DNA of 64,000 bases, taken from Synechococcus sp. A10-1-5-1. Its GTDB lineage: Bacteria > Cyanobacteriota > Cyanobacteriia > PCC-6307 > Cyanobiaceae. Shown here in pieces: positions 7,123 to 62,410 of this stretch. The first letter of the stretch is position 1; each line of letters opens with the position of its first letter. A program made the position numbers and the translations under genes. The stretch spans positions 372,001 through 436,000 of the forward strand of contig NZ_CP096032.1 in assembly GCF_023115425.1 (NCBI RefSeq), written 5' to 3'. The notes under the pieces were generated by a model. That model saw only the letters and a program-made list of their open reading frames with translations, did not search any database and was not told the DNA's origin.

Positions 7123-7146
7123 CAGTTTCGCATCGATGGAAATCGC

Positions 7147-7350: not shown

Positions 7351-7420
7351 TCAGCCATGAGGACCTACGTCACTAGAGCGTCAGCCGATCCGAGGCACAA
7401 CCGCCAGAACGGAAGAAATT

Positions 7421-7732: not shown

Positions 7733-7756
7733 GTCGTCTGCTGCAACCTCAGAAAC

Positions 7757-7939: not shown

Positions 7940-7986
7940 CTCCCTGGCGAATCGCTGCCGCAACGATGGCCGCAATCAGGGGGATG

Positions 7987-8103
7987 TCAACGCAGAACGG
8001 GAACCGGCAGATAGGCAGGGGCAAAGCTGCAGGCCAGCACCAGCTGACGCAAGGGCAGGCCAAAGACCGTGCTGACGAAATCAATCGCGACGCGGGACAG
8101 CAA
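7987..8103 (-). CDS. Possible membrane microprotein (38 aa)
   Basis: A short frame with a TTG start (8103) reads as hydrophobic with a positively charged end (LSRVAIDFVSTVFGLPL then LVLACSFAPAYLPVP). It fills the gap between the PAS protein and the ribbon-helix-helix gene. Too short to assign and the start is weak. Confidence 0.3.
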   Translation of the reverse strand: MLSRVAIDFVSTVFGLPLRQLVLACSFAPAYLPVPVLR

Positions 8104-8196
8104 AGGACCAAACCCAGTGTCTCAATTGTAAAGAGACGTAAAGCAGGACTCAGCTTGCAGGTGTCAGGTCAGGGATCGGCCCTGCCGCAGCTGGCT

Positions 8197-9021: not shown

Positions 9022-9076
9022 TCCAGATTCCCCAGGCACCAACCCTATCGGTCGTTCCAGGGCCGATGCTGAGGAG

Positions 9077-9889: not shown

Positions 9890-9911
9890 AAAACAGCCCG
9901 GTCAGGGCTGT
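9887..9911 (-). terminator. Intrinsic terminator of the minus-strand hydrolase gene
   Basis: Perfect 7-bp stem (9893-9899 / 9905-9911) with a 5-nt loop. On the minus strand it is followed by a run of T (A-run at 9888-9893 on plus). It lies 72 bp beyond the stop of the hydrolase gene and touches the stop of the converging ABC gene. Confidence 0.75.
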
Positions 9912-9982
9912 GTGAGGAGGCTTCGCTGCCATAGAACCGGAGCCAACCTCAGCAGGCGATGGGTAGAACAACTCAACCGTTC

Positions 9983-11515: not shown

Positions 11516-11550
11516 AGGCGCAGCCGCGATCCGCTCTCCATCATCGGGGC

Positions 11551-12027
11551 ATGACTGCGATCGGCACCCCGTCCTCTTCCCTCCAACACGACGCTCCAGT
11601 GGAGGTCGCACTGGCTGTTCTTGAGAAAGACGGCTGCTGGCTACTGCAGTTGCGCGATGACCTTGCAGGAATCGTTGCCCCTGGCTGCTGGGGTCTGTTT
11701 GGTGGTCACCTCGATCCAGGGGAATCCCCAGAACAAGCGCTGCGCCGGGAACTCTGGGAAGAAATCCGGCTGGAGGTGGGCTCCGTGGAGCCTTGGTACG
11801 TCTCCCGCAGCCCCAGCAAAATCCGTCATGTCTTCCGTGCACCTCTGCAGATACCGCTTTGCCGGCTGGACTTGATGGAGGGGCAGGACCTGGCTCTGTT
11901 CCCACCGGAGCTTCTGGAGTCGGGCCAAGGGTTCAGCTCGAAACTGCAGACCTCTCGCCCCCTGGCCGAATCAACACTGGAAGCCCTAGGCCGATATCAA
12001 GCCGGGGGACGCTCAACAATGCGGTAA
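11551..12027 (+). CDS. NUDIX hydrolase
   Basis: 158 aa. The NUDIX box is GGHLDPGESPEQALRRELWEE, close to the consensus GX5EX7REUXEEXGU except that the final glycine is replaced. The fold start (VEVALAVLEKDGCWLLQLR) is also typical. Hydrolyses a nucleoside-diphosphate-linked compound; substrate not predictable. The 3' end overlaps the convergent gene at 11997 by 31 bp. Confidence 0.85.
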   Translation: MTAIGTPSSSLQHDAPVEVALAVLEKDGCWLLQLRDDLAGIVAPGCWGLFGGHLDPGESPEQALRRELWEEIRLEVGSVEPWYVSRSPSKIRHVFRAPLQIPLCRLDLMEGQDLALFPPELLESGQGFSSKLQTSRPLAESTLEALGRYQAGGRSTMR

Positions 12028-12638
12028 TAACTGCGCTCGTCGGAGCAACAAAGATCGGCGTAGTAGCGCTCAAGGACGTCATAGGCCGCGTCGTAACTCT
12101 CGAAGTCCTGCCCCGCAATGGGATCGCTTGGGTGCGGATTGGCGTCCTGCCCATCAAGAACGATGCGAAACACCGGTCGCTTCGGTTGCAGCCGTGCCAG
12201 TAACGCATCAAAAGTCAGACCCTCACCAAAGGCACGCTTCAGGGGGTTCAAGCCAATCGATTGGCGATCGGGATGCAACTTCGCGGTGGGGACGAGCCAA
12301 AACAGCCATTGCGCTGGCTCAAGGGGATTGGTCGGAGCAGAAGTGCTCTCCCCCAACAAAGCAAACAACAAGGTGGTGGCCTCACCACCGGGGATACGGA
12401 ACTGAACCGTGCCTGGCTTCAGCTGGTCGGCTGAGCTGTAGAACGCCGCCGTAGAAATCGCCAATTGCCAACTCTTCAGAGGCAACACAAGGGACTGAAG
12501 ATCGACATTGGGCTTGGAGGGACCCGGGTCGAGTTCCAGGCCTTTTAGAACCAACCAGTGGCAGCTGGCCTCTCGGACGTCATCGGCAAGCAGGTCGGGC
12601 GTATTCCATTCCAGGAAGGCCGAGAGCTCAGACATCAA
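11997..12638 (-). CDS. Conserved cyanobacterial protein of unknown function (213 aa)
   Basis: Not recognised. It reads as a soluble globular protein without signal or membrane segment, with conserved-looking aromatic stretches (QWLFWLVPTAKLHPD, FESYDAAYDVLERYYADL). Its start lies within the end of the upstream WbuC-like cupin gene (11 bp overlap), so both are likely one transcription unit. The second ATG (12635) is also possible. Confidence 0.65.
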   Translation of the reverse strand: MMSELSAFLEWNTPDLLADDVREASCHWLVLKGLELDPGPSKPNVDLQSLVLPLKSWQLAISTAAFYSSADQLKPGTVQFRIPGGEATTLLFALLGESTSAPTNPLEPAQWLFWLVPTAKLHPDRQSIGLNPLKRAFGEGLTFDALLARLQPKRPVFRIVLDGQDANPHPSDPIAGQDFESYDAAYDVLERYYADLCCSDERSYYRIVERPPA

Positions 12639-13119
12639 ACAAGCTCCTCCACTCGACTTCCTGGTTCACCGATTCAAGCTCGCCTTCCTGGGGAAACCCA
12701 ACCAGAAAGTCTTTGTCGGCCAGGGGCTGGTAAGGACCTTGTTTGAGCTCAAAGATGACCGTATCGGCCGTCAAGGCGACCAGGGAGTGGAACGATCCCT
12801 CGCTGAGTTGCAAGCCACGAACTGGGCCCGCGGCATCGAGCCGGTGGCGCTGAGTACACACTCCGTTGTCGTCAAACAGCAGAACACCGATTGAGCCCTG
12901 AAGCACCACAAAACACTCAAAGCCCTCCCCTGTTCCCTGACGGCTGTGCCGATGCGGCCTGACATAAGTACCGGGCTGCATGACGTTCAAGAAACGCTGC
13001 ACCAGATCGCTCTCCTGGTGCAGGTTGAAATTCATCCGTTGGCGATCGCTCTGGCGCGAGCGCAGCGCCACCTGATCGAACAGGTCTTGATCAATCAATT
13101 GGAGCGCAGGCGCAGTCAT
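12628..13119 (-). CDS. WbuC-family cupin-fold protein
   Basis: 163 aa from the ATG at 13119. The RMNFNLH segment, QRFLNVMQPGTYVRPHRH (metal-binding histidines of a cupin) and ECFVVLQGSIGVLLFDDNG are the pattern of the WbuC family, first found in O-antigen gene clusters. Function is probably sugar- or metal-related but not established. An in-frame start 13 codons upstream is less likely. Overlaps the downstream hypothetical gene. Confidence 0.8.
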   Translation of the reverse strand: MTAPALQLIDQDLFDQVALRSRQSDRQRMNFNLHQESDLVQRFLNVMQPGTYVRPHRHSRQGTGEGFECFVVLQGSIGVLLFDDNGVCTQRHRLDAAGPVRGLQLSEGSFHSLVALTADTVIFELKQGPYQPLADKDFLVGFPQEGELESVNQEVEWRSLFDV

Positions 13120-13340
13120 CGACAACAACGAGGAATCAACACAGGTCGGTAGCGACACGTACCGACAGCCTGGGATGGGTCAGCGACTGTGGCTGAGTCA
13201 TGAGCAGTGGCCATGCCCGATTGGATCCGACCTCTGATTGCCGTAAGTCTGACCAGCTGCAGCGTCGGCTTGCTGACCGCCCTTGGGGGTTAAACCTCGC
13301 TAGTGTGACGATTGCACATTCGTCCACACCCTGGGTCCCG

Positions 13341-49790: not shown

Positions 49791-50207
49791 TCAGCCGCCG
49801 TCCACTCGGCAGCCGACCAGGGCACCAGCTGCGGCTCCCACAGGAACCCCGATCCAGCGGCCATTGCCACGGGAGAGGGCTGCTCCAGCGCCAGCACCCA
49901 GAAGGCCACCGATGACCGAGCCTTCAATGCAGCTGTTGTCGTCCACCTTTTTAGAGGACGTCGGGTCTTGGCTGGTGCCCTCGACTGCGGTCGGGGAGTC
50001 GCAGGGGATCTCGACCTTCTCGCTCCACTTCTTGACGTAGCCAGGGGAGTCCTTGGTTCCAGGGACGTACTCCTCCCGATATTCATCCTTGAAACACTCG
50101 CTGGTCTTGGAATAGCCAGGCTGCGAGACCTGCTGAGCCATGACAGGAAACACCTGAGTAGAGCTCAGCGCCAGCGTGAGCCCAACGACAGCGGACAAGC
50201 GGTTCAT
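49791..50207 (-). CDS. Exported protein with glycine-zipper segment (138 aa)
   Basis: Signal peptide (VGLTLALSSTQVFPVMAQ), then a Cys-containing region (KTSECFKDEYREEYVPG, EIPCDSPTAVEG). The C-terminal segment VIGGLLGAGAGAALSRGNGR and WIGVPVGAAAGALVGCRV is a glycine-zipper of the type seen in 17-kDa surface antigens and SmpA/OmlA-like proteins. Probably periplasmic or outer-membrane associated. It is the last gene before the integrative element. Confidence 0.72.
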   Translation of the reverse strand: MNRLSAVVGLTLALSSTQVFPVMAQQVSQPGYSKTSECFKDEYREEYVPGTKDSPGYVKKWSEKVEIPCDSPTAVEGTSQDPTSSKKVDDNSCIEGSVIGGLLGAGAGAALSRGNGRWIGVPVGAAAGALVGCRVDGG

Positions 50208-50301: not shown

Positions 50302-50375
50302 CCGAGATCGACTGCGCTGCAAAGAGGTGAACCGCTGTGCCGTTCTGCCCCAGATTCCGACCTGAATAAACCAGA
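50302..50375. repeat. Left attachment repeat (attL core)
   Basis: Direct repeat of 60036-60110. Exact for 39 bp (50326-50364 versus 60061-60099); differences are a CG/TA pair, one indel with a substitution near 50325 and one A/G. It is the displaced copy of the 6S RNA 3' end. Confidence 0.9.
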
Positions 50376-50426
50376 GACAGACCAGAACCCAGTTCCTGCC
50401 AAGAAAGCTTGCTGCAACATGGTCCC

Positions 50427-50459
50427 GTCAGTCAATATGTCAGTCAGTTTGTCAGTCAA
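50427..50459. repeat. Left iteron set (putative recombinase arm sites)
   Basis: Three direct GTCAGTCA units at 12-bp spacing (50427, 50439, 50451). It ends 5 bp before the integrase start, so binding there could repress the integrase. An almost identical set (one mismatch in 33 bp) lies at 59987-60019. Confidence 0.8.
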
Positions 50460-50464
50460 CCAGC

Positions 50465-51766
50465 GTGGCCCTGCCCTCTGGGTTGATCCAAATCAAAGGC
50501 AGGCGTGGGTTCTACACGAACATCACAGTCCCGCTGAAGCACCGCAAAACGCTCGGCAAGTCAGTCATCCAAAAGAAGGCTGGCGACACGCTTCAGGAAG
50601 CGCGGCAGAAGCTGTGGGAGGAGCAGTCCAAGGCTCGAGATCTGTTCCAGCGGCTTGAGCAGGAAACGCCCGAAGGACAGCTAAGGGCTCGCTTCCGTCA
50701 ATGGCAGCAGATCGAAACCGAGGAAAAGGCAAAGGGGATCGAGCCGAGTGATTTGGAGCTGAGCGCAGAGGAGTCACTCGAGCTTGAGATCAACGAGGCG
50801 GTCTGGCCAACGGCTGACCCAATAGATCCCACCGAAGGAAGACTCTCCAGAAAAGACAGGAGGCTCGTTGAAGAAGCGGAGGCGCTCAAGGCAGGCCTTC
50901 ACCATTGGGAGGAGTGGCTGAGCGAGAGAACGGTCACGTCAGGGGGTGTCAGCCCACTTGTTGAGAAGCGTTGGAGGACGGTCCTTAAAAGGTTTGTCGG
51001 GTGGTCAAGAGAGGAGTACCCAGAACGGGTCGAGAAGAAAACAGCTGCTGACTACAAGCGCCATCTCCTCACCAGGACCAACAGACAAGGGAGAACCTCG
51101 AAGCAGTCGACGGTGGCGAAAGACATCCGAGACCTAAGCGCTGCCTGGAAATGGGCAACCCGGCACGGGTTCGCCAAGGTCAACATCTGGGAGGGGCTTG
51201 CAAGAAACCTGGAAACAAGCAAGCCGCGCTCACTGCCCGACAAGAACACGATCACGAAGGCAGACGAACGAGCTGCTGTGAATTCAGACCTGAGGTACCT
51301 GATCCAAAGATTCACTGGCTGCCGCAAACAAGGGGTCTGCGGACTGAGGAAGCAAGACATTGATCTCGAGAATCAGCTCATCCATTTCGTGGAGTACGAG
51401 GAGGAGGGCAGGGTCAGAAAGCTGAAAGGGGGGCAAGAGCTACACATCCCCATTCACAGGACCCTGCTGCCGTTCCTCCTAAATGCGATTCCGGCGTTCC
51501 AAGACGGGCCTCTATGGCCAGAGGAGTACAAGGCAGGTGAGGAGAGCTGGGGTGATCGATATGGGGACAGCTTCAAAGACCGCTATGGCTTTAACAGCCA
51601 TGACCTGAGACGGATTGTCGAGACACAGATGGCGAAAGCGAATGTGAGCCCATACTTCGCCTTCTATGTGACTGGTCACCGAGTTCCAGGGATGTCTGAA
51701 GTGACGACCAAATACGTAAGACCCACTGCTGATGAGCTGAGGCAAGTCGTAGAGCTTATTGACTGA
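50465..51766 (+). CDS. int: Tyrosine recombinase / integrase
   Basis: 433 aa site-specific recombinase that would insert and excise the element. The catalytic residues are visible: Arg in RFTGCRKQGVCGLR (box I), Lys in RVRKLKGGQELHI, HDLRR (His and Arg of box II), the GH in YVTGHRVPG and the nucleophile Tyr in TTKYVRP. Residues ~150-245 form a core-binding domain (WRTVLKRFVGWSREEYP, AAWKWATRHGF). The N-terminal ~50 residues (IQIKGRRGFYTNITVPLK) look like an arm-binding domain. GTG start at 50465. Confidence 0.93.
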   Translation: MALPSGLIQIKGRRGFYTNITVPLKHRKTLGKSVIQKKAGDTLQEARQKLWEEQSKARDLFQRLEQETPEGQLRARFRQWQQIETEEKAKGIEPSDLELSAEESLELEINEAVWPTADPIDPTEGRLSRKDRRLVEEAEALKAGLHHWEEWLSERTVTSGGVSPLVEKRWRTVLKRFVGWSREEYPERVEKKTAADYKRHLLTRTNRQGRTSKQSTVAKDIRDLSAAWKWATRHGFAKVNIWEGLARNLETSKPRSLPDKNTITKADERAAVNSDLRYLIQRFTGCRKQGVCGLRKQDIDLENQLIHFVEYEEEGRVRKLKGGQELHIPIHRTLLPFLLNAIPAFQDGPLWPEEYKAGEESWGDRYGDSFKDRYGFNSHDLRRIVETQMAKANVSPYFAFYVTGHRVPGMSEVTTKYVRPTADELRQVVELID

Positions 51767-51769
51767 TGC

Positions 51770-52810
51770 TGTGAAAGGTGATGTCTGGGCTCTACAGACG
51801 AAGGAAGTAGCGGGCGTCGACGAAGACAAGTAGTAACGGTCCCATAGGGGAGGGACAGATCCGCCTCGTAAATAGCGAAAGCGTTGATAGCGGGCGTTTA
51901 GAGGAGAGGGTTCCGAGCAGTCCACGAAGCAGTCTCCAAGAGCCAGGTCGAAAAATCAGACCTGGCGAGGAATGAAACCGTGGTTCCAGGCTGAATCTGG
52001 AGTGCCTGTTCCCACAGGCGGTTTAACCGAACACGCACTTATATAGGGGAGGCATCTGGCTCAAGCCATCACTGGGAGTGCTGGGTTAATGGCGCACTTA
52101 TACGGAAGAGACGCCTGGTTAAAGCACTAAATAGGAGAGCTTGGCTAATGACACACTTATACAGGGAAGCCCCCTAGCTGAATCCCTGAGAGGGGAGAGC
52201 TGGGGTAATGGCGGACTTATACAGAGAAGTCACCTGGCTAAAGCCCTAAATGGGAGAGCTGGGGCAATGGCGCACTAATACAGGGAAGGCGCCTCAGGGC
52301 GTCTCGCTGTTCCTGGGCCGTCGCCGCTGACCGTCAAAGCAAAGACGTAAAAACTCCACGCCTGGAAACGTGGTTAAAGAAAGGCAGAGCTGCGAATGCC
52401 CATTGGGGAGTAGCTCGTTCTGCGGTTTCGTTGAACCCAGGCACTAAGGACGTCAGGCACCCTTAGCAGCGGCCAAATCAACGCTTGCCCGCGACACCTG
52501 GAGAGGTGGCGTGAGGACCCTCTCCAAGTTGAAGCCCGTTGCAATGCCGCTTGGCGTTACGACGGGACTAACGAACCGACTGGAAGGTCAAAGAGAAGCC
52601 TCCGGCTGTAGCCAGTTCATTTGAAACAACTGCCGACCAAGGCAGTAGCGAAGACGAAGCAGAGTCCATGTCATCCAGACAAGACCACTGAAAGTCTTTG
52701 TGTTTCAAACGGGCTGAGCTACAGGCGGAGCCACTTTTAGTGGCGAGTTTCACTTTGCACCATCCAGTTGAAGATATATACGGGTTAACTGTATAGAGAA
52801 GCAGTTAAGT
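51770..52810 (+). ncRNA. Large structured noncoding RNA candidate
   Basis: About 1 kb directly after the integrase holds no credible gene but many perfect inverted repeats: 51783-51799 (5 bp), 51839-51856 (5), 51942-51966 (8), 52004-52019 (6), the tandem array at 52035-52300, 52356-52373 (5), 52444-52466 (6), 52495-52508 (5), 52535-52566 with inner 52543-52558 (6), 52629-52646 (6), 52681-52698 (5), 52730-52744 (5) and 52785-52808 (7). Several stems contain G-T pairs that only work as G-U in the plus-strand RNA. Context and size recall phage-borne giant RNAs such as GOLLD and ROOL, but I see no specific match. Ends and promoter are not defined. Confidence 0.6.
52035..52300 (+). repeat. Tandem array of ~59-60-bp hairpin units
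   Basis: Units begin near 52035, 52094, 52153, 52213 and 52272 (spacing 59, 59, 60, 59), the last partial. Consensus start GCACTTATACAGGGAAG, then CCTGGCTAAAGCCC and GGGAGAGCTGGGG. Within each unit CCTGGCT-type and AGCTGGG-type segments can pair, closing an inner CCC/GGG hairpin. The mixed 59/60 period argues against coding. Confidence 0.85.
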
Positions 52811-53032
52811 GCACTCCAGAAATGGAGCCTAAATGAACACAGGAGCAATCCATCACTCGACAAAGAACATATCTGGACAACAGAATAGGTGCTATAGGCA
52901 AAACCTAAGACAACACAACCCAAGATGACTCTCCGTGAAATACCCAGATAGGTACTTATCACTCGATCGACAATCACCGTCTACCAGGACAAGGGACCAG
53001 TAGGCGGCACCAAAGATTTCAACGTTGAAAAA

Positions 53033-53935
53033 ATGGACTTACCAACACTTATTAATCCAATTCGAGATGATGGCGGCCTCGACCACCGCTACACAGGCTT
53101 GGCAAGGCAAATCGTTGACCTGGCTGGCAAGAAGTGTGTCAGCGAATTGGCAGCCTTTCATCAATACACCAATGACGCCGAAGCACGTTTTGAGAAGGCC
53201 GGACTAACGCTTGTCATTTCGTTCTTCCAAATCACGATGGAGCCTTGGCAACGCAGAAGCTTTAAGAAGAGACTGCGTCAGTGCCTGGAAGAGATTGGTT
53301 TCAGGCCATCCAAGATCACCAAGCTCCTCACAGCAGGGGAGTTCGTAGCAGCAGAGCTGACTGATCAGTTCAGGCAATCCGATTCCTATCAAGACTGGTT
53401 TGACTCTGCAGAGGCTGCTAAGGCACACAACGAGGAGCACATCGTCTATCTCCATAGTCATGGAGTAACAGCTCTGTACCACCTGGCGAGGATGAATTAC
53501 AAAGGTCAAGCAAAGGCACGTAGTAGCTACGACCACGAGATAGGAAAACCACTATCCGTACGAGACCTTGAGAAGCTCCAGCGGCAGCACCCAGCAGAGA
53601 ACAGAAGCCAACGATCAGGTCGCGGAAGGCAACCAGGAACCAATCAGAAGGCGAACTCAGCACTTCCTCAAGGTTCTGAGTGCCCAAAAGTAGAAGTCGA
53701 ATCTTCTGTCATTGCTGAACTGATGCCTTTGGAACCATCCGTAGACAGCCGTGAAGCCACCACCACCGAGCTGGCTGAACAGCTTGTCTATTTGGTTCAA
53801 AGCATTGACTGGTCAATGATCAAGGACAACCAAGAAGCGATGGAAGTACTCAGCACTGTTGAGTACACCTGGAGTCAGATCAGCGAGGTTGTCGACGACT
53901 GGAAGTACTTACCCCAGCAACTCACTCATGCATAA
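53033..53935 (+). CDS. Element protein of unknown function (300 aa)
   Basis: Soluble helical protein. The first half (ARQIVDLAGKKCVSELAAF, RRSFKKRLRQCLEEIGFRPS, KITKLLTAGEFVAAEL) looks DNA-binding or replication-related, broadly like DUF3102-type plasmid/phage proteins. The middle (RSQRSGRGRQPGTNQKANS) is a basic linker. It is first in a row of overlapping small ORFs. No function can be assigned. Confidence 0.65.
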   Translation: MDLPTLINPIRDDGGLDHRYTGLARQIVDLAGKKCVSELAAFHQYTNDAEARFEKAGLTLVISFFQITMEPWQRRSFKKRLRQCLEEIGFRPSKITKLLTAGEFVAAELTDQFRQSDSYQDWFDSAEAAKAHNEEHIVYLHSHGVTALYHLARMNYKGQAKARSSYDHEIGKPLSVRDLEKLQRQHPAENRSQRSGRGRQPGTNQKANSALPQGSECPKVEVESSVIAELMPLEPSVDSREATTTELAEQLVYLVQSIDWSMIKDNQEAMEVLSTVEYTWSQISEVVDDWKYLPQQLTHA

Positions 53936-54089
53936 GAAGCAGATTACTCACAAATGCACACCACACATTCGCTACTGGCAGTCTGGGCAGATCTCAGTAT
54001 CTGCAAGAACACGGATCGAATCACTGATTCAACAAGGACGCCAGCGTGAAGCCAGAGCAATGGCTAGCGAATGGATTATCAGAACATAA
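53928..54089 (+). CDS. Small element protein (53 aa)
   Basis: Starts at an ATG 8 bp inside the end of the 300-aa gene. Basic and helical (VSARTRIESLIQQGRQREAR, AMASEWIIRT). Unknown; kept because of the tight overlap. Confidence 0.45.
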   Translation: MHKKQITHKCTPHIRYWQSGQISVSARTRIESLIQQGRQREARAMASEWIIRT

Positions 54090-54099
54090 ACGCAATCAA

Positions 54100-54261
54100 A
54101 TGAACAACCAACCAGAAACTCTCAACCATCGACTCACACTCATCACTAAGAATGGATCTATTCACCTGGGATGGGTCGAAGACACTCTCCCTCAACCCTC
54201 CCCAACCAAACCCATCCAGCTGGAACTGGACTTCAACCAAGGAGACACCCAATGGCACTGA
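54100..54261 (+). CDS. Small element protein (53 aa)
   Basis: ATG at 54100, 10 bp after the previous stop. Contains LTLITKNGSIHLGWVED and a Pro-rich acidic end (PSPTKPIQLELDFNQGD). It overlaps the next gene by 10 bp. Unknown. Confidence 0.42.
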   Translation: MNNQPETLNHRLTLITKNGSIHLGWVEDTLPQPSPTKPIQLELDFNQGDTQWH

Positions 54262-54515
54262 CCATCAGTCGCTACGGAGAGGTTTCACCTACAGAGATCC
54301 ACTCCAGCGGCATTGCTGTCTCCACTCCCATCTACATCACACTCACAAGCGATCAACGGAAGGCGCTGCTCAATCGCTTCAGACAGATCAAGCAGGAGCA
54401 GCTAGCAACAACTAACTGCCTCGTAAATAACCCAGGAGAGGCTTCCAAGCCTCCCGATGATGCAGGTTTAAGCAAGCGGTTTGACGCACGTAGAGGAGCT
54501 TCTAGGCATGTCTGA
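54252..54515 (+). CDS. Small element protein (87 aa)
   Basis: ATG at 54252 overlapping the preceding ORF. Segment GIAVSTPIYITLTSDQRKALLNRFRQIKQEQ reads as a strand and amphipathic helix; the tail is polar. Unknown. Confidence 0.48.
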   Translation: MALTISRYGEVSPTEIHSSGIAVSTPIYITLTSDQRKALLNRFRQIKQEQLATTNCLVNNPGEASKPPDDAGLSKRFDARRGASRHV

Positions 54516-54708
54516 GGAGCGTCTCCGTTATGGGTTATTTAGTCGGAATGGAATGCCTGAACGGTTAGTGGTCAGTCTTCAAAGAATTACTGGGTTAGAG
54601 CTGGTGAATAGAAGGGAGATTGAATTGACTATGACTGGGTGGTTGGATTATTTGTTTTCAGCCAGTAGCGCCAGAGATTCGATTATGAGCAATCTTCAGT
54701 CGCTTTGA
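54508..54708 (+). CDS. Small element protein (66 aa)
   Basis: ATG at 54508 lies 8 bp inside the previous ORF, with GGAG 10 bp upstream. EERLRYGLFSRNGMPERLVV and SLQRITGLELVNRREIELT suggest a compact helical, perhaps DNA-binding fold. Last gene of the overlapping cassette. Confidence 0.5.
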   Translation: MSEERLRYGLFSRNGMPERLVVSLQRITGLELVNRREIELTMTGWLDYLFSASSARDSIMSNLQSL

Positions 54709-54805
54709 GTGTTGTGCTGTGTGAGTAATGAGTCAAGCTGCGTTGATAGCGATGGTGCCAGGTATTGGAGGCTGATTTGCTGGCTTATGGGTGTGACTGA
54801 AGAAA

Positions 54806-54835
54806 TAAAAAGCCCCTGCGGTTGCAAAGGCTTTG
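54806..54835. terminator. Likely bidirectional terminator
   Basis: AAAAAGCC (from 54807) and GGCTTT (54829-54834) flank a GC-rich loop between the converging cassette and beta-barrel gene. T-runs occur in the minus direction, so it probably ends the minus-strand transcript as well as stopping the cassette. Confidence 0.55.
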
Positions 54836-54852
54836 GGTGGTTAGGATGCGTG

Positions 54853-55842
54853 TTATTGACTACCAGCAGCTATCCAGCCCCCACCAGCTCCTATTGATTG
54901 TAAAAATATCTCACCAAGATTTGTATCGTGCACCCGCACATCCCTATTGCTAGGCGTTGATGTTATGGCGCTAACAGCGGCATTTGTTTTTGGTGTTTCT
55001 TTGCCAGGACCGCCATTCGTATTGAAGCGCCACTTGATGTCTGCCGAGAAGCGTGACTTGAAGGCACTGTCATAAGACAGGTTGGTGCCAACCGTAAGTC
55101 CGTTGTTGATGGCATAAGCGAGGCGAGCCAAGACACCAGAGCCATCGGCTGCACCTTCATCACCGTTTTGGTAGTAGTAACCAACAGAGGCTCTTAGTCC
55201 TGGCGTCAGGTTGTAACCAGCATCTAAGCCATAGGTGTCCAGTGCACCGCCTTGATAGACGGTGTTGAGCTGTTGCTCGGTGTCACCCGTTGGAATGAGC
55301 GCATAAGCATTGAATGCCCACTTATCGCTTACCGCTTCTGCATTGACAGCCGCCTGCTAGAAGAAAGCCGTGCGTGAGGCATAGACAGGGATGCCTGTAT
55401 CAGCAGGACCCGTGCTCATTGGTCGGGTGTCATAGCCCGCATTCAGTCCATACATCCAACTGCGGTCACCATTGAGCCAGCGATAGCCCAGGCGCGATGA
55501 GGTGGAGATGGTGGTACCAGCCACCTTCGTATTGATGATGCTGCTGCTGTTACCCCAGTCCGAGAAGTTGGCATTCGCCAGGACATCAGCAAAGAAGACG
55601 CTGTTGCTGCCGACGACCAGTGGAAGGAAGCTACCCAGACCTGCTTGGTTGGGGGTGCCAGCGGCTTGGGTTTGACCTTGGATGCCGACCTGCGGTTTGA
55701 CGATGTCCTTGAGCTGAATGCTCATCACGCCCAGATCTTCTGCTGACCCTTGAGCTACGGCAGGCTCGGCGTTAACGGAAGGGAGGGTTGCAAACGCAAA
55801 AGCCGTTGCAGCCACGCCGCAAAAAGGTCTTATGAGGGACAT
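54853..55842 (-). pseudogene. Outer-membrane beta-barrel protein gene with in-frame amber codon
   Basis: A 330-codon frame beginning with a signal peptide (FCGVAATAFAFATLPSVNAE) is interrupted by a single TAG at 55357-55359; frame, composition and motifs continue unchanged after it. Before the stop: SSRLGYRWLNGDRSWMYGLN and AGYDTRPMSTG, resembling the beta-domain of inverse autotransporters (intimin-like). After it: DTYGLDAGYNLTPGLRASVG and GLTVGTNLSYDSAFKSRF, more barrel strands. The local codon reads TTC TAG CAG, so one C-to-T change of CAG would explain it. It is either a fresh pseudogene, a read-through gene or a sequencing error. Confidence 0.75.
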
Positions 55843-55998
55843 TGAAAGGTTTCCCTCACGAATCAATTTGCATCACATTGCATCGGCGACAGCTCACTTC
55901 AGCGGCTTAGGTGTCAGTCGCTTTATTGGCGGCTCCGACCTTCGGTATGGAGATTGGGGAAAGGGGTCACTGCCTTGATCAATGATGGGGTGATGCAC

Positions 55999-56253
55999 TT
56001 AGGGTGTATTCGCGAAATTGCGAGCAGGCCACCCTCGCCGATTTTTCGCTACACCTGTAGCGCCTGTTGAGTGAGTCGCTACAGGCTGTGGAGCTTGGTG
56101 CTTCCACTCAGGCAGCTCCTGCTTGGTGCCAATAACTTCACCGCTAGTACGCATCAAGCCAGGCATAAAAGTAATCACAAAGAAAATCACAGGTAGACCA
56201 ACGACGAGCCCGCCAACGAATACATAGCTAAGCGCAAGTTCGCTCCATGACAT
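55999..56253 (-). CDS. Small membrane protein (84 aa)
   Basis: One long hydrophobic segment (LSYVFVGGLVVGLPVIFFVI then TFMPGLM) followed by a polar tail (KQELPEWKHQAPQPVATH). Unknown family. Lies upstream of the broken barrel gene on the same strand. Confidence 0.52.
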   Translation of the reverse strand: MSWSELALSYVFVGGLVVGLPVIFFVITFMPGLMRTSGEVIGTKQELPEWKHQAPQPVATHSTGATGVAKNRRGWPARNFANTP

Positions 56254-56800
56254 GTTTCCAATCTCCTGCTCACCGATGAGCCAAGCCTAAGGGCGATGGA
56301 TTCCAAACTTGTTAAGACTGCATTGTCGAGATAGATCTCCTTCATATCTGCTCCAACATGCAGTATCGCGTGGGTCTCATGGATCTTCTGTTGGCTGTCG
56401 TATCGGAGCCGGTGCTGACTGCTTGGTATTGCGACTCCTTTGCGTATCTCCTTCTCGTTTGGATTACGGATGAGCGCAACATGGCAGTGAGCTGTGCGGC
56501 ATCGATAAGGAATCTCTACATACAGGCAACTAACGCAAAAACCACAGCTGCACCAGGTGCGCGTTAGGCGCAGAAGCTAACGCGGCAATTAGACATGCAA
56601 TAAATAACTGACCGATATCTCTGCAAATGACCCTCAAGCCGAGAGACGAACACGAATAGTTCAAACACAGATTTCTGAGGCCAATTCACGTACCAGCAAG
56701 GACTCCAGATACCCCCGTACCGGGTGTCCGTTTGCTCGCATGAGCTGGCGGCAGCACTGCAGGTAGTGCCAGCGTTCACCAGTTACTGGGCGACCTTCCA
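56254..56800. other. Interval with no supported gene, 547 bp
   Basis: Only low-quality frames are present (for example 56358-56567 plus). Nothing recognised on either strand; part of the sparse right half of the element. Confidence 0.4.
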
Positions 56801-56953
56801 ATGAACCCAGCCGCTCTTACCCGCCACGACCAGCTGGAGCAGGAATGGCAGCAGCGTCTGCTGATGCAATCCAGCAGCAATCAGGCAAAAAAAGAGACGG
56901 ATTCCACCCCGCCTCGTCTATCTCCCTTACCCGACCCGAAGGCCGTGAAGTGA
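56801..56953 (+). CDS. Possible small protein (50 aa)
   Basis: ATG start, polar and helical (NPAALTRHDQLEQEWQQRLL) with a Pro-rich end. Reads like a real small protein but has no recognised family and no good ribosome binding site. Confidence 0.42.
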   Translation: MNPAALTRHDQLEQEWQQRLLMQSSSNQAKKETDSTPPRLSPLPDPKAVK

Positions 56954-57172
56954 TCATCCGGCAGCCGTTCAAGCGGTGATGTGCTGTTTGTAACCGGCTG
57001 AACGTTTTGTGTGGGACTGAGGACCGCCGCAGGACGAGTTCAGGCAGCTGGCGAGGTGTGCATACCAGCAGCAGCTCCGATACATACCAACGGCGGCTCA
57101 AATGCCGCTCAGCGGCTTAGATGCGGCTACCTCCGCACGAAGTGATGAACGCGCTGACCTAAGTGCAGGTGA

Positions 57173-57439
57173 CTAGCGAGCAAGACCTGGGTCTGTCGAT
57201 GCACCCGCGTTGCCGCCGCCAATCCCTGTCGGGACACCTGATGGGTACTGCATGACCTGACGAGCTGATGGAGGGAGGTTTCCGATTCTCCTAACCGTGG
57301 CCTCCCCGCCTGTAGTGGTCTTCAAGCCGCTACCGACCAATTGAACCGCCAATGAGACCAGCGCAAAGACGCCGATAAAGACACCACCGATTGCCCAAGG
57401 ATTGACGTGAGATTGGTGGAGCGTCGAGTTGTGAGCCAT
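57173..57439 (-). CDS. Small membrane protein (88 aa)
   Basis: One clear helix (PWAIGGVFIGVFALVSLAVQ then LVGSG) with a polar C-terminus (RRIGNLPPSARQVMQYPSG). Unknown. Stands alone in the element. Confidence 0.5.
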   Translation of the reverse strand: MAHNSTLHQSHVNPWAIGGVFIGVFALVSLAVQLVGSGLKTTTGGEATVRRIGNLPPSARQVMQYPSGVPTGIGGGNAGASTDPGLAR

Positions 57440-57687
57440 AAAAAGGGAGGTTCACTCTCCTCTCTTTATGTAGTCGCGGCTACCAACCTGGCGTGAGTAT
57501 TTGAGCTCGTCTCTGCAAGTTATGTTCGCTGGTATACAAAAGATTGGAAGGCACGATCAATGGAAATGCAAGCGCCGAAACGCCATGCGCAAAACCAAGA
57601 AAAGCCGCCAGGGACACCACTTTTCTCATGTCTAGACCCTTAAGAGAATCTAAATATTGACATGAACGGGCCGCCGGCCTCGCGAAA

Positions 57688-57732
57688 AGCGCCAACAGCT
57701 CCCCGACCCACTGCTCAGTAGCGGGGAGTGTT
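57688..57732. repeat. Repeated hairpin, copy 1
   Basis: Hairpin with CTCCCC / GGGGAG outer stem and inner ACTG / CAGT, opening AGCGCCAACAGCTCCC and closing GGGAGTGTT. A related copy lies at 59547-59590. Confidence 0.6.
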
Positions 57733-57816
57733 GAGGTGGGGGAGCTTGGCACTCCCCCGTCTCGGATCACGGGGTTCTCTCGGACCGTGTCCTCAGCGGT
57801 TATGGCCTTAGTTGGT

Positions 57817-58047
57817 TCAGGAGTGCAAGGGGAACCCGTCGCGACTTCCCCAATAGGGAGGAAGTTGTTCGTCTCCATCGCCGTTGGCGTCGGCCTCCGG
57901 AACATTTCGGCTCAAGTACAGGGCGTTGGCATAGCCCTTTACGACAGTGCATCCAGCAGGACCGCATACGCGGTATTCGTTGCGCCCCAGAGGTTGAAGT
58001 GTTCCTTTTCCTGGAGCTGGTTCAGACGGGACGAATCGGAGATCCAT
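57817..58047 (-). CDS. Possible small protein (76 aa)
   Basis: ATG at 58047 (a TTG one codon upstream is an option). QPLGRNEYRVCGPAGCTVVK and NALYLSRNVPEADANGDG look like a secreted or domain-like protein with a CxxxxC pair. The open frame extends further upstream without a start, so it may be a 3' remnant of a longer gene. Confidence 0.42.
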   Translation of the reverse strand: MDLRFVPSEPAPGKGTLQPLGRNEYRVCGPAGCTVVKGYANALYLSRNVPEADANGDGDEQLPPYWGSRDGFPLHS

Positions 58048-58196
58048 CAAGACTTTCGCAACCGAAGCCAGTCCTACCGCCTCGGAAAGAGACCAGCTTG
58101 ATATAGATGATACGGATTTTGCAATTGTTTGCGTGCTGCGCCTTGTCCCTCTTGAGCGGCGGCGCTTGCAGCTGGCAGCTCTAAAGCTTTAGCGAA

Positions 58197-58412
58197 CTAG
58201 TACACCTGAGCATTGCGATTAGGTTTGTCGTCGCAGGTAGGCTCGCCGATCTGCTCAAGGACGTCTCCGTCGCTAGTGACCAGTCGATAGACGCGGCCTG
58301 TGACTCGTGATTTCGCCAGTGCTGTCAAGTAGGCCTTGAAATGATTTCTTTTGCTGCCCTCGTCTTGCCAAGGCTCATCGGTGCTGGAGCGGCTTTGGAT
58401 CAAGACAGCCAT
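58197..58412 (-). CDS. Small protein (71 aa)
   Basis: ATG at 58412. Layout: a strand (AVLIQSRSSTDE), a helix (KRNHFKAYLTALAKSRVTG) and a strand pair (RVYRLVTSDGDVLEQIGEPT). Resembles the protein at 59051-59257 in shape (helix, then YR-V-D). Unknown. Confidence 0.5.
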   Translation of the reverse strand: MAVLIQSRSSTDEPWQDEGSKRNHFKAYLTALAKSRVTGRVYRLVTSDGDVLEQIGEPTCDDKPNRNAQVY

Positions 58413-59050
58413 GGTGCAGACGGACTTGTATCCCTGAGATAACGATGCCTCGTCGTCATGTTGAGATAGGAGAAATACCGATCTGCTTTGGGATTCACGA
58501 TTCACTCGGATTCTCAAGGGGAGCGTGGGATGAGCTGTTGTTTTCCTGTAGTTTCTTCATTCGCAAATGGAGACATTGCTTGCAGGTAAATCGAGGCTTG
58601 AGACGATCTCCACAGCACTACGACCTTTGGCTGTATGCCATCGCCAGGCTCTGAATTGAGCGTCGCGGACATAGAGAGGCGCCAACTCGCTTTGCGTGAC
58701 TGTCCAGACCTTTTTGCTCTTCCCCGCCGCTGCAGTGACCTGGTCATCGACTACCAGAGTTCGGCGCAAGCAGATGTGGATCAACGGATTAAGGGCGGTT
58801 CACGGGAAGACAAGCGTGCCGCTTAGCTCGTGCTGAACACCTTGTGTTTTGCAGGTGTTCGCATGTTGCTGATATCGCTTGCCCAGGCTCTTTCCCTTGG
58901 GGACCAATAAGTATCCACTACATGCAGTGTTCCGTGTAAGGCGATACCTCCTGGGACGCTGTGCATGGCGTGATCCCAAGGAGATTCCGTTGTTTTTACC
59001 CAAGTCAGTGGCGCCGATCGACCTTGTGCATCCCCTCCACTGAGAAGCTC

Positions 59051-59257
59051 GTGTTTTCCATCGAAAGACTGACCAGCACAGGCTGGAGACAAACCGAAGA
59101 ACATCCCGACCACGATCTTGCCCACTTGCACGCACGGCTCAAGAACTTCGCGGATGGTTCCACCTACAGAGTCATTGACCCTGACCAGACCATGGTTTGC
59201 CTGTTCTCAGGCGGCGCCACGGAGTGTTGGGCAATGGACCACGTCAAGGTGGGGTGA
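59051..59257 (+). CDS. Small protein (68 aa)
   Basis: GTG start. VFSIERLTSTGWRQTEEHPD, then DLAHLHARLKNFADGSTYRV and IDPDQTMVCLFSGG. Same general plan as 58197-58412, which suggests distant paralogues. Unknown; a minus-strand frame (58823-59131) overlaps its start and is judged less likely. Confidence 0.5.
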   Translation: MFSIERLTSTGWRQTEEHPDHDLAHLHARLKNFADGSTYRVIDPDQTMVCLFSGGATECWAMDHVKVG

Positions 59258-59546
59258 GTCCAGGCTTGCCTCGGCGAAACAGCTCCCACCGCTTCTATTC
59301 GGCCGCAACGCCAGTGCTATCACGCAACGGCTCCCTGTTCATAGAGGTCGACGGCGCGATCGCCGATCTATGTGCAAGCTTCGGGAATGGAAACGAGTTT
59401 CAGTGCCCGTCCGAGCGATGAGGATTTAGCCCTTTTGTGGCCAAAAACCCCCTACAACTGCTGGATAGGTGGCGACTTTGTGTTGCCTTGCAGGTGTGAG
59501 CTGTGCGCTGCTCACCGACGCTCACGTTGGGACGAAAAAGACGAGT

Positions 59547-59590
59547 AGCGCCAACAGCTCCCAACCAACTGCTTAGTAGTAGGGAGTGTT
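59547..59590. repeat. Repeated hairpin, copy 2
   Basis: Diverged copy of 57688-57732 (about four fifths identical by eye) that keeps the CTCCC / GGGAG stem and the inner ACT/AGT pairing. Conservation of pairing despite changes suggests a structural element. Confidence 0.6.
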
Positions 59591-59592
59591 TC

Positions 59593-59682
59593 TCAGCAGT
59601 CCGCCACGGGTTTGTCGTCGCCTTGTCGGATGTACACGTGGCAAGTCGGTTCTGGCTTTTTCCAGGACCCTTTCTTGATCAT
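59593..59682 (-). CDS. Possible microprotein (29 aa)
   Basis: MIKKGSWKKPEPTCHVYIR and a short acidic end with Cys as last residue. Its ATG overlaps the stop of the 19-codon frame upstream (ATGA). Very short; kept as a candidate only. Confidence 0.28.
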   Translation of the reverse strand: MIKKGSWKKPEPTCHVYIRQGDDKPVADC

Positions 59683-59738
59683 CGCAACCGTTGCCAAAGG
59701 AACAGCGCGATGAGGATGCCGTCAGTGAGTGGTTCCAT
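59679..59738 (-). CDS. Possible membrane microprotein (19 aa)
   Basis: MEPLTDGILIALFLWQRLR: a short hydrophobic helix with a basic end. Overlaps the start of the 29-aa frame by 4 bp. Candidate only. Confidence 0.28.
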   Translation of the reverse strand: MEPLTDGILIALFLWQRLR

Positions 59739-59986
59739 CAGCCTCTCCTTGCCTACCTCTGGTCTAGCCCTAGCGGGTGCTTCTCAACCAAGGCGAGCGA
59801 GCGGCCAGGGGTGCAAGTGGGTGGCAAGCGCTAAGGGGTCAGAATTCGCGGCAAAATTTCCGAACCCATTTCTCGTACCCCCAAGGTCTCGAAACGCCCC
59901 CATGGCCCCTTCTGCGTTGAACGTCTAGGGGAGGCATCAACGACCCACCTGAGAGGCTCTGCAGCCCGTCGAGACGGCACTCAGCT

Positions 59987-60019
59987 GTCAGTCAATGTGT
60001 CAGTCAGTTTGTCAGTCAA
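59987..60019. repeat. Right iteron set (putative recombinase arm sites)
   Basis: Three GTCAGTCA units at 12-bp spacing (59987, 59999, 60011), one mismatch from the left set over 33 bp and in the same orientation. After excision the two sets would flank the att core. Confidence 0.8.
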
Positions 60020-60035
60020 TCGGATCCAACAAAAC

Positions 60036-60110
60036 CCGAGATTAACTGCGCTGCAAAGGGGGTGAACCGCTGTGCCGTTCTGCCCCAGATTCCGACCTGG
60101 ATAAACCAGA
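60036..60110. repeat. Right attachment repeat (attR core, 3' part of 6S RNA)
   Basis: Direct repeat of 50302-50375. It lies within the 3' arm of the predicted 6S RNA hairpin, so this end of the element rebuilds the RNA gene. Confidence 0.9.
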
Positions 60111-60228
60111 AGGGGAGTCAAAGCGAAGATTCGTTTCCGGCTACGAGGCCGGTCTACGGCACTGTCGCGACAGACGCCCCAAGTCGAAAAGGGAGTCAGA
60201 TCAGAAAACTGTAAAAGGCAGTGACCAA
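60040..60228 (-). ncRNA. ssaA: 6S RNA (SsaA), putative
   Basis: Lies ~30 bp downstream of purK on the same strand, the place known for cyanobacterial 6S RNA, and spans about 185-190 nt, the usual size. Long-range pairing fits a 6S rod: 60218-60222 with 60045-60049, a CCCC/GGGG block (60177-60180 with 60058-60062), and a perfect 7-bp helix 60156-60162 with 60072-60078. Two local hairpins sit inside (60137-60152 and 60097-60109). 6S RNA binds RNA polymerase holoenzyme and tunes transcription. Exact ends are estimates; identity rests on position and fold. Confidence 0.68.
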
Positions 60229-60257
60229 CACAGCAGTCCGTCGAAATCTTAGGCCCA

Positions 60258-61478
60258 CTAGGCAGCCACTGTCTCCTCCGGCAAGGGCCAAATCGCCCGG
60301 ATCTGCTGCAGACGTTCCATCGCTTCCTGGCGGCGTTGTTGCGCTTCGCTGGACCGCAGCAAGACAGTCAAATGGCCCAACTTCCGTCCGAGGGAGGACC
60401 CCCTTTTGCCATACCAGTGAAGGTGGGCATCGTCCAGGGACGCCAAAGCGTGACGCTGACGGCCATAGTCCGCCTCGGGGTCATCAGCGGAACGCCGCTC
60501 AAAGCCCAAGAGATTGACCATCAAGGCACCAGGAACCTGCAAGGACGGTTCTGGTACGGCCTGACCGCTCACGCTGAGCAGTTGCAGGTCGAACTGGCTG
60601 CAGCTGCTGGCCTCGATCGAATAGTGACCGGAGTTGTGGGTCCGAGGGGCCAGCTCGTTGATGAGCAATCCTTGGCGCCCATAGAAAAACTCCAGTGAGA
60701 GCACCCCGACGTAGTCCAGGGAGGTCAGGAGGGATGCGGCGATGTTGCGGGCGGCCTGCTGCAAGGCATGGCTGGCTTCCACAGGGGCCAGCACCCAATC
60801 ACAGACCTGCTGATGCTGGTGGGTTTGAACCAACGGCAGACAGACCACCTCACCGAAGCGATCGCGAGCGGCCACCAGGGCGAGTTCCTGCTCGAACGCG
60901 ACAAACTCCTCAACGATCCAGTTTTCGGGATCAACCCGAGCGATTAAGGCCGCCAAGTCATCGAGACCCTGAAGGATCGCGGTGCCCTTGCCGTCGTAAC
61001 CGCCGGTCGCAGCCTTGGCCATCAAGGGAAAGCTGAATCCCTCGGGGCACACCGCTTGGCTCCGGGGCGGAGCGGACGTGGCAGGTGTTGGCTTTGGCGG
61101 GCAGGCCGCGGTGAGCGGAAACCAGCGCGGCGAAGGCAAATTCAACCGCCGCAGTAGCTCCCGCTGGTTGCGCTTGCAAACCAGGGGTTGCAGAGCACTC
61201 AAGCTGGGGACGAACTGGACCCCTTGGGCCTCCAGTGGCGCCAGGCCCTCCAGATCAATCCACTCGTTCTCAAAGCTGATGGCCGAGCAGCGTGTCGCCA
61301 GCTCCGCCGTGCCCGCCACATCGCGAACGGCTGCCTCCACGACCCCCGCGGCCAAGGCGGCGGCGGGGTCATCGGTGGAGGGGGTTTGAACCTGCAGGGC
61401 GATCTGCCGGCGCTGGGCAGCCTCGGCAAGCATCCAGGCCAACTGCCCGCCGCCGACGATGCCGATCGCAGGGCCCAT
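60258..61478 (-). CDS. purK: 5-(carboxyamino)imidazole ribonucleotide synthase
   Basis: ATP-grasp enzyme of purine synthesis that carboxylates AIR. 406 aa from the ATG at 61478. IGIVGGGQLAWMLAEAAQRR at the N-terminus, PLMAKAATGGYDGKGT (ATP-grasp lysine and glycine loop), VEEFVAFEQELALV and INELAPRTHNSGHYSIEAS are diagnostic. The C-terminal HWYGKRGSSLGRKLGHLTVL is also typical. The stop lies next to the putative 6S RNA. Confidence 0.95.
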   Translation of the reverse strand: MGPAIGIVGGGQLAWMLAEAAQRRQIALQVQTPSTDDPAAALAAGVVEAAVRDVAGTAELATRCSAISFENEWIDLEGLAPLEAQGVQFVPSLSALQPLVCKRNQRELLRRLNLPSPRWFPLTAACPPKPTPATSAPPRSQAVCPEGFSFPLMAKAATGGYDGKGTAILQGLDDLAALIARVDPENWIVEEFVAFEQELALVAARDRFGEVVCLPLVQTHQHQQVCDWVLAPVEASHALQQAARNIAASLLTSLDYVGVLSLEFFYGRQGLLINELAPRTHNSGHYSIEASSCSQFDLQLLSVSGQAVPEPSLQVPGALMVNLLGFERRSADDPEADYGRQRHALASLDDAHLHWYGKRGSSLGRKLGHLTVLLRSSEAQQRRQEAMERLQQIRAIWPLPEETVAA

Positions 61479-61513
61479 GCGCCTTGAGCTCCAATCGTTC
61501 AATGTCGCATGCA

Positions 61514-62410
61514 CTAGGTCAAGCCGCGATCGCCTGCAAACAGGAAGCGAACCAGTGACAACAGCAGCACGATCACGAACAGGGCCAGACCAACCGTGCA
61601 GGCGTAGCTGATCTCCAGCTCGGCGAAGGCCTGGTCGTAGACGTAATACACCAGGGTCTTCGTGCTGTTCGCGGGTCCCCCCTGGGTCATCAGATAGACC
61701 TCCTCAAACACCTTGGTGGCCGCAATCGCTGAGATCACCGCCACCAAGGTGACGTAGGGACGCAGAAGGGGCAGCGTGATGTCGAGGTGCTTACGCCAAC
61801 CCTCACTGCCGTCGAGCTCCGCGGCCTCATAGAGATCGCCCGGGATCCCCTGGAGACCGGCCAGGAAGATCACCATGTAATACCCCAGGCCCTTCCAGAG
61901 GGTCACAAGCATCACGGCCGGAAGCGCCAGCAATGGGTTGGTGAGGAAGCCAATCGGCTCAAAACCAGGACCCAAGAGCGTGCCGAGCCATCCATTAATC
62001 AAGCCGTTCTCGGCGTAGAGCCAACGGAAGGCAATCGCCGCCACCACGATCGAGACCAGCACCGGGGTGTAGAAGGCGGCCCGAAACCAGTGGATCCCTG
62101 GAAGCTGACGGTTCACCAGGACCGCCAACGCGAGCGCCCCCAGCACCACCGGCGGCACCACCCCAAAGAGATAGGCCAAGGTCGTCCCCAGGACCTTGAA
62201 GAACATCGGATCCGCCAACAGGCGCCGCACGTTGGCTAGGCCAACAAAACGGAGGGGTTCAGAGACGTCCAAACCGGTCTGGGTGAAGCTCATCACCAGG
62301 GCCATCGCCGCTGGGATCAGCACCGAGAGGGAAATCAGCAGCAGCGCCGGCGCCAGAAAGGACCAGGCGGTGGCGGAGGAAGCACCGGTACGGAGGGAAC
62401 GCTCAGCCAT
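61514..62410 (-). CDS. Sugar ABC transporter permease (MalF/UgpA type)
   Basis: 298 aa, six membrane helices. N-terminus AWSFLAPALLLISLSVLIPA and the EAA loop EAAELDGSEGWRKHLDITLP are standard for CUT1 carbohydrate permeases. Substrate may be a disaccharide or glucosylglycerol-type solute. The partner permease and binding protein are not in the window. It lies 35 bp upstream of purK. Confidence 0.9.
   Translation of the reverse strand: MAERSLRTGASSATAWSFLAPALLLISLSVLIPAAMALVMSFTQTGLDVSEPLRFVGLANVRRLLADPMFFKVLGTTLAYLFGVVPPVVLGALALAVLVNRQLPGIHWFRAAFYTPVLVSIVVAAIAFRWLYAENGLINGWLGTLLGPGFEPIGFLTNPLLALPAVMLVTLWKGLGYYMVIFLAGLQGIPGDLYEAAELDGSEGWRKHLDITLPLLRPYVTLVAVISAIAATKVFEEVYLMTQGGPANSTKTLVYYVYDQAFAELEISYACTVGLALFVIVLLLSLVRFLFAGDRGLT

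What the first reader, a model, noticed from the sequence alone, without database searches (positions are those of the whole stretch)
60036..60228. The integrative element appears to use the 6S RNA gene as attachment site
Seen: the right direct repeat (60036-60110) forms the 3' arm of a ~188-nt rod-like RNA that starts ~30 bp after purK; the left repeat at 50302-50375 is the displaced original 3' end. Known: cyanobacterial 6S RNA lies downstream of purK; islands often target the 3' ends of tRNA or tmRNA genes and restore them. Inference: here the restored gene is 6S RNA, a global regulator of RNA polymerase, which I do not know as a common target.
Basis: partly seen in the sequence, partly recalled or inferred. 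Interest (0 to 1): 0.85.

Follow-up and report, generated by a model that had tools for sequence, protein, structure and literature searches.

The report
Mobile islands target 6S RNA gene
A family of mobile DNA elements in small marine and freshwater cyanobacteria inserts itself into the gene for 6S RNA, a master regulator of RNA polymerase, and replaces the last 40 letters of the gene with its own copy so that the RNA stays whole; the RNA genes usually known for this are those of tRNA and tmRNA.

Summary
The finding holds and is broader than claimed. Rfam 6S (94 bits) lies at 60060-60242 minus, next to purK. Its last ~50 nt are repeated at 50302-50375, beside a tyrosine integrase (50465-51766). 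A close relative (G009) has the empty site: purK-6S-glycine-zipper gene, no element. In a 300-genome sample of the family, 11 genomes in 8 genera carry elements or remnants at 6S, including Prochlorococcus single cells, Synechococcus UW140 and an Aphanothece MAG; sizes run from about 3 to 40 kb. In eight genomes a displaced 6S 3' end lies just upstream of a related integrase that faces back to 6S. In G086 and G273 the displaced copy is the native one, and the intact 6S is a chimera whose 3' end came from the element. G273 limits strand exchange to CAGGTCGA, about 40 nt inside the RNA. It works like tRNA/tmRNA-gene islands but with a new target gene. Matching integrases were absent from phages, viral contigs and other families in the class sample; E. 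coli ssrS shows no such duplicates. I found no paper describing 6S as an attachment site, but two key papers were not readable here.

The parts
60060..60242 (-). 6S RNA gene (intact, restored), single copy in the genome
   Evidence: Rfam RF00013 94.1 bits, model 1-187/187; single copy
60036..60110 (-). attachment repeat on the 6S side: last ~50 nt of 6S plus 24 bp downstream
   Evidence: 93% over 75 columns to 50302-50375, E 7.8e-25
50302..50375 (-). attachment repeat on the integrase side: displaced 6S 3' end, followed outward by the host flank
   Evidence: flank matches relatives
60093..60099 (-). core CAGGTCG in the intact 6S, proposed strand-exchange site (CAGGTCGA in most relatives)
   Evidence: invariant in family 6S alignment; boundary of identity in the elements, and polymorphism in G273
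50358..50364 (-). same core in the displaced copy; the base before it is T here and C in the intact copy
50427..50459 (.). three 12-bp-spaced TGTCAGTCA-type repeats, proposed integrase arm sites, integrase side
   Evidence: (97% to the other array); arm function inferred
59987..60019 (.). matching array of arm-like repeats at the 6S-side end
50465..51766 (+). tyrosine integrase, 433 aa
   Evidence: PF00589 8.5e-08, phrog_1 integrase 1.8e-20; conserved catalytic region in alignment
53033..53935 (+). cargo ORF, 300 aa, unknown function; distant relative (22%) in the G273 element
   Evidence: no family above cut-off
50365..60098 (.). element (about 9.7 kb), GC about 0.54 against about 0.60-0.65 in the flanks; mostly short or unrecognised ORFs
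   Evidence: repeat spacing 9735 bp; composition
49791..50207 (-). host flank: glycine-zipper protein gene, directly downstream of 6S in the empty relative
   Evidence: PF05433; position in G009 and G092
60258..61514 (-). host flank: purK, upstream neighbour of 6S
   Evidence: next to 6S in relatives

Best explanation
The window holds an integrative element of about 9.7 kb whose tyrosine integrase recombines its attP with an attB inside the 3' part of the host 6S RNA gene. Strand exchange takes place in the core CAGGTCG(A), about 40 nt before the 3' end of the RNA. The element's attP carries a copy of those last ~40 nt (and some downstream DNA), so after integration the 6S gene is whole again with an element-supplied 3' arm, while the host's own 3' end is pushed to the far end of the element, next to the integrase gene. 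Direct arm repeats at both ends probably bind the integrase's N-terminal domain. Shown by sequence: the 6S gene, the repeats, the integrase, the empty sites, the recurrence, and the chimeric 6S in two relatives. Inferred: the catalytic act, excision, arm binding, and continued function of the chimeric RNA.
For: 6S identity. Repeat and integrase at the expected places. G000, G150, G273, G156, G086, G198, G023 and G145 have a displaced 6S 3' end of 21-50 nt upstream of the integrase start, in a fixed orientation; in G109 the integrase lies 4.3 kb from 6S at a contig end. Empty sites: G009 for G000/G092, G069 for the ~40-kb element of G023, G005 for G198. Origin of the 3' end: in G086 the displaced copy CTTACGGCAAAG matches unoccupied relatives, whereas the intact 6S has CATACGGCAAGG; in G273 the intact 6S has GAAGCCTGGAGGCTG where relatives and the displaced copy have forms of GACCACTGGGGCTCG. 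Chimeric RNAs keep the rod fold. The displaced copy of G150 has lost 2 nt while the intact gene has not. The integrase group is confined to this family in 390 genomes of the class.
Against: No excised circle or attP was seen: phage and viral collections hold no relative of the integrase and a scan of viral contigs for the 6S 3' end gave only chance matches. Three close relatives of the integrase (G156 second copy, G169, G101) have no 6S fragment beside them, and a 6S-only clade is rejected, so the specificity is not fixed in the group. In the window genome the two copies differ too little to tell donor from host.
Confidence: 0.93

Rival explanations
1. The true attachment site is the region just downstream of 6S (terminator or intergenic DNA), and the RNA gene is touched only because the repeat reaches into it.
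For: In genus g52 the repeat includes the conserved terminator-like hairpin, and in the window it reaches 24 bp beyond the RNA.
Against: Across genera the only part common to all repeats is the last ~40 nt of 6S; the downstream parts differ between genera and between intact and displaced copies. In G086 and G273 the element-specific differences lie inside the RNA, so the exchange is upstream of them.
Confidence: 0.04
2. The repeat is a partial duplication of the 6S gene made by homologous or illegitimate recombination, and the integrase nearby is a bystander.
For: Short direct repeats also arise by other means; G092 has the repeat but no related integrase.
Against: Same arrangement with an integrase in eight genomes of seven genera, exact empty sites, arm-like repeats at both ends, and no such duplicates in 5375 E. 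coli genomes.
Confidence: 0.02
3. Beyond a safe harbour, the element changes 6S RNA: by swapping the 3' arm and the downstream DNA it alters the amount, end or refolding of 6S and so host transcription, to its own benefit.
For: The element supplies about 40 of 183 nt and the downstream flank; in G273 eight positions differ from the displaced 3' arm and the predicted MFE changes from -65.3 to -72.8 kcal/mol. Two elements carry a T7-type RNA polymerase.
Against: In most elements the supplied arm is the same as or nearly the same as the native one and the fold is unchanged, as expected if the purpose is to leave 6S unharmed.
Confidence: 0.08

Closest known systems
[quoted passage not shown] TIGER/Islander resource, PMC12424338)
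   Same: Tyrosine integrase, target is the 3' part of a structural RNA gene, the gene is restored by the element and a displaced fragment marks the other end.
   Different: The target is 6S RNA. The TIGER/Islander resource sorts its sites into tRNA/tmRNA, protein-coding and intergenic and names no 6S class.
Tycheposons of Prochlorococcus and others
   Same: Islands with a tyrosine recombinase and cargo in picocyanobacteria.
   Different: Reported to sit at seven tRNA genes (as cited in PMC10872708). The original tycheposon paper was not held, so relatedness of the integrases was not tested.
T7-like cyanophages with integrase (P-SSP7, S-TIP37; PMC8776855)
   Same: Picocyanobacterial integrases; two of the 6S elements also carry a T7-type RNA polymerase.
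   Different: All attP sites found in that study match tRNA-Leu; the two 6S integrases tested have no match in the phage collection and the element polymerase is only about 27% identical to theirs.
Cyanobacterial 6S RNA / Yfr7 / 6Sa (PMC1242208, PMC2518516)
   Same: Same gene, downstream of purK.
   Different: In the passages read there is no mention of integration at this gene.

Membership tests
Integrative element of the tRNA/tmRNA-gene island type | tyrosine integrase encoded at one end | tested here: met
   PF00589, phrog_1; gene starts 90 bp from the repeat
Integrative element of the tRNA/tmRNA-gene island type | intact RNA gene at one end, displaced 3' fragment at the other | tested here: met
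Integrative element of the tRNA/tmRNA-gene island type | empty site in relatives | tested here: met
   G009, G069, G005
Integrative element of the tRNA/tmRNA-gene island type | target is a tRNA or tmRNA gene | tested here: not met
   no tRNA or tmRNA in the window; target is 6S
Integrative element of the tRNA/tmRNA-gene island type | excision as a circle | not testable with these tools
   no reads held and no attP found
6S RNA (RF00013) | sequence and rod-like structure over the curated score | tested here: met
   94.1 bits against 46.4, full model
6S RNA (RF00013) | binds RNA polymerase holoenzyme | not testable with these tools
   needs an experiment
Tycheposon | sits at one of seven tRNA genes | tested here: not met
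   target is 6S; definition taken from PMC10872708
Tycheposon | integrase of the tycheposon family | not tested
   reference sequences not available here
Prophage or phage satellite | phage structural or packaging genes | tested here: inconclusive
   none in the proteins scanned from the elements, but only a selection of ORFs was scanned; two elements have a phage-type RNA polymerase

The most novel reading that the evidence does not exclude
The 6S gene is used not only as a safe harbour: elements supply a modified 6S 3' arm and flank that change how 6S restrains the host RNA polymerase, and some of them carry their own T7-type polymerase that 6S would not be expected to restrain, so that integration couples element expression to the host's growth state.
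Probability: 0.07. Interest if true: 0.9.

Novelty: new variant of a known kind. Interest (0 to 1): 0.62.

Why it matters
Structural RNA genes are the classical landing sites of mobile elements, but the catalogue that I could read names only tRNA and tmRNA genes. A lineage-wide integrase group devoted largely to 6S adds a third RNA gene. It shows that mobile elements repeatedly rewrite the 3' arm of a global regulator of RNA polymerase in some of the most abundant phototrophs, gives exact borders for islands that would otherwise count as intergenic, and provides natural pairs of strains (with and without the element) in which the effect on 6S can be measured. It also offers integrases with a conserved landing site in picocyanobacteria, which are hard to engineer.

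Tried and rejected
Scans of genome contigs and viral contigs with the single integrase found nothing; with the alignment they gave six named genome loci and no viral ones. The 6S 3'-end pattern in viral contigs gave 12 matches, all without similarity to 6S or to the integrases, so chance. The phage collection has no match to the integrases tested or to the 6S gene. Weak second matches of the 6S-end model under about 22 bits (G009, G026, G072 and others) mostly lie elsewhere in the genome and were treated as chance; the second copy in G119 lies at a contig start and may be an assembly duplicate. G209 and G173 have arm-like repeats beside 6S but no second 6S end, so they are possible remnants only. 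A first tree had a wrong frame for G150 and wrong strands for two outgroups; it was replaced. The attachment sites of the three sister integrases without a 6S fragment were sought by direct repeats and not found. Paper hits for the word ssrS together with prophage were other meanings of SSRs in the three papers opened.

Full report
Observation. Rfam finds one RNA gene in the window: 6S RNA (RF00013) at 60060-60242 on the minus strand, 94.1 bits against a gathering score of 46.4, full model length. It is the only 6S gene in this complete 2.40-Mb genome and follows purK (60258-61514, minus), which is its place in cyanobacteria (PMC1242208). It covers the last ~50 nt of the RNA and 24 bp beyond. 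A tyrosine integrase of 433 aa (PF00589, phrog_1) starts 90 bp from the left repeat. The DNA between the repeats has lower GC (about 0.54 over the element, minimum 0.485 per kb) than the flanks. Both ends also carry a 33-nt array of 12-bp-spaced repeats.

Empty site. In G009, a relative of the same genus (PurK 87% identical), 6S is followed after about 80 bp by the same glycine-zipper gene and then the same next gene that lie outside the left repeat in the window. G092, another relative, has the same flanks and a 6.5-kb insert with a displaced 6S 3' end of 42 nt but no related integrase. Its insert shares with the window's element about 290 bp at the 6S-side end (89%) and the terminal repeats, not the interior. 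The same locus therefore exists empty, filled with an integrase-bearing element, and filled with an integrase-less one.

Recurrence. In 300 genomes of the family, 19 have an integrase match at E <= 1e-10. Of the eleven matching places at E <= 1e-43 outside the window genome, seven lie 4 to 40 kb downstream of the 6S gene and face back toward it: G150, G273, G156 (contig 14), G086, G198, G109 and G023. A displaced 6S 3' end lies upstream of the integrase start in G000, G150, G273, G156, G086, G198, G023 and also G145, whose own 6S gene was not found in its incomplete assembly. In G109 the contig ends there. G021 has a decayed case with about 97 matching residues of the integrase left. A search for second copies of the 6S 3' end that does not use the integrase found the same genomes and added only G092, G021 and a doubtful one, G119. 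In total 11 of 300 genomes in 8 genera carry an element or remnant at 6S. In 390 genomes of the whole class the integrase group (E <= 1e-150) appears only in this family.

Crossover and origin of the 3' end. Aligning 6S 3' ends by genus on the invariant CAGGTCG gives three results. First, displaced copies agree with 6S from CAGGTCG to the 3' end and diverge just before it. Second, empty sites exist for two more elements: the sequence after the displaced copy of G023 (~40-kb element) is the sequence after the intact 6S of G069, and likewise, more loosely, G198 and G005. Third, where copies differ, the displaced one is native and the intact one is foreign. In G086 the displaced copy reads CTTACGGCAAAG and is followed by AT-rich flank, as in the unoccupied relatives G185, G110, G130, G056 and G161; the intact gene reads CATACGGCAAGG. 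In G273 the intact gene reads GAAGCCTGGAGGCTG, where eleven other genomes of its genus and the displaced copy have forms of GACCACTGGGGCTCG. Under a single conservative exchange this places the crossover in G273 within CAGGTCGA. The element thus supplies about 40 of 183 nt. The RNAs rebuilt with the displaced end and the present ones fold as rods in nearly all cases, and one displaced copy (G150) has lost two bases, as expected for a copy no longer under selection.

Ends and order. At both ends of most elements, direct repeats with 12-13-bp spacing occur, roughly 25-100 bp from the core. The sequence differs between element groups: TTGACTGACA in G000 and G150, GGTACCCACA in G156, GGTCCTACCA in G086, GTCCCAACCAG in G109. 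They look like arm sites of heterobivalent integrases; that is inference. In G198 and the decayed G021 no shared repeat was detected by the script. In G145 the displaced copies are followed outward by arm-like repeats of another type, which suggests tandem accretion of elements.

Phylogeny. The 6S-associated integrases and three relatives form a fully supported group against other integrases of the family (100/100). The nine 6S-associated ones are not a clade of their own (AU p 1.8e-05): G156's second copy, G169 and G101 lie among them and have no 6S fragment. The simplest reading is an old 6S specificity with later change of target or loss of the fragment; their targets were not found.

Controls and searches elsewhere. 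The 3' end of E. coli ssrS is present once, never twice, in all 5375 E. coli genomes that match (fragments under 28 nt would be missed). Viral contigs and phage records hold no relative of the integrase. In the literature searched, no paper joined 6S RNA with an attachment site. The TIGER/Islander resource sorts sites as tRNA/tmRNA, protein-coding or intergenic (PMC12424338); tycheposons are reported at seven tRNA genes (PMC10872708); integrase-bearing T7-like cyanophages use tRNA-Leu (PMC8776855). The original tycheposon paper and the 2020 TIGER paper were not held, so the statement that the target is new is provisional.

Judgement. It works like a tRNA/tmRNA-gene island and meets every tested feature except the target gene. 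I therefore file it as a new variant: 6S RNA as a further structural RNA gene used, with restoration, by a lineage-wide group of integrases. Mobility itself and the fate of the chimeric RNA remain to be shown.

Noticed in passing
L053:8587-11037 (G273) and L054:7046-9478 (G156): Two 6S-inserted elements encode a full-length T7-type single-subunit RNA polymerase (phrog_414, E 1e-152 and 1e-144), 39% identical to each other; the G273 one is about 27% identical to cyanopodovirus polymerases, and its catalytic Asp residues are kept in the alignment to T7.
   Followed up: partly
family genomes, e.g. G075:C1:813559-815997, G089:C1:1109079-1111505, G092:C1:2046613-2049006, G056:C1:763437-765881: Relatives of that polymerase (38-74% identity) occur in about a dozen chromosomes of the family, mostly not at 6S, which suggests a wider class of chromosomal elements with their own polymerase.
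   Followed up: no
L065 (G092:C1:727000-743000), 6865-13322: Element at 6S without an integrase of this group but with both ends kept; could be a non-autonomous or decayed form.
   Followed up: partly
L062 (G156:C2), L063 (G169), L064 (G101): Close relatives of the 6S integrases without a 6S fragment beside them; the target is unknown. G156's second copy is very near to its 6S-linked copy, a possible recent change of target.
   Followed up: partly
L061 and L071 (G145): Displaced 6S ends followed outward by arm-like repeats of another type: possible tandem array of elements at 6S in a Prochlorococcus single cell.
   Followed up: no
L110 and L111 (G023:C1:3359000-3398800): The largest 6S-bounded island (~40 kb) is full of repeated ORFs that look like insertion sequences and carries sugar-metabolism genes (alpha-amylase/isoamylase type); its integrase differs from the others at its C-terminal end.
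   Followed up: no
window 52000-60000: Apart from the integrase and a 300-aa ORF, the window's element has few convincing genes; 54853-55866 resembles two pieces of one 332-aa protein in the G156 element, so it may be a broken gene.
   Followed up: no
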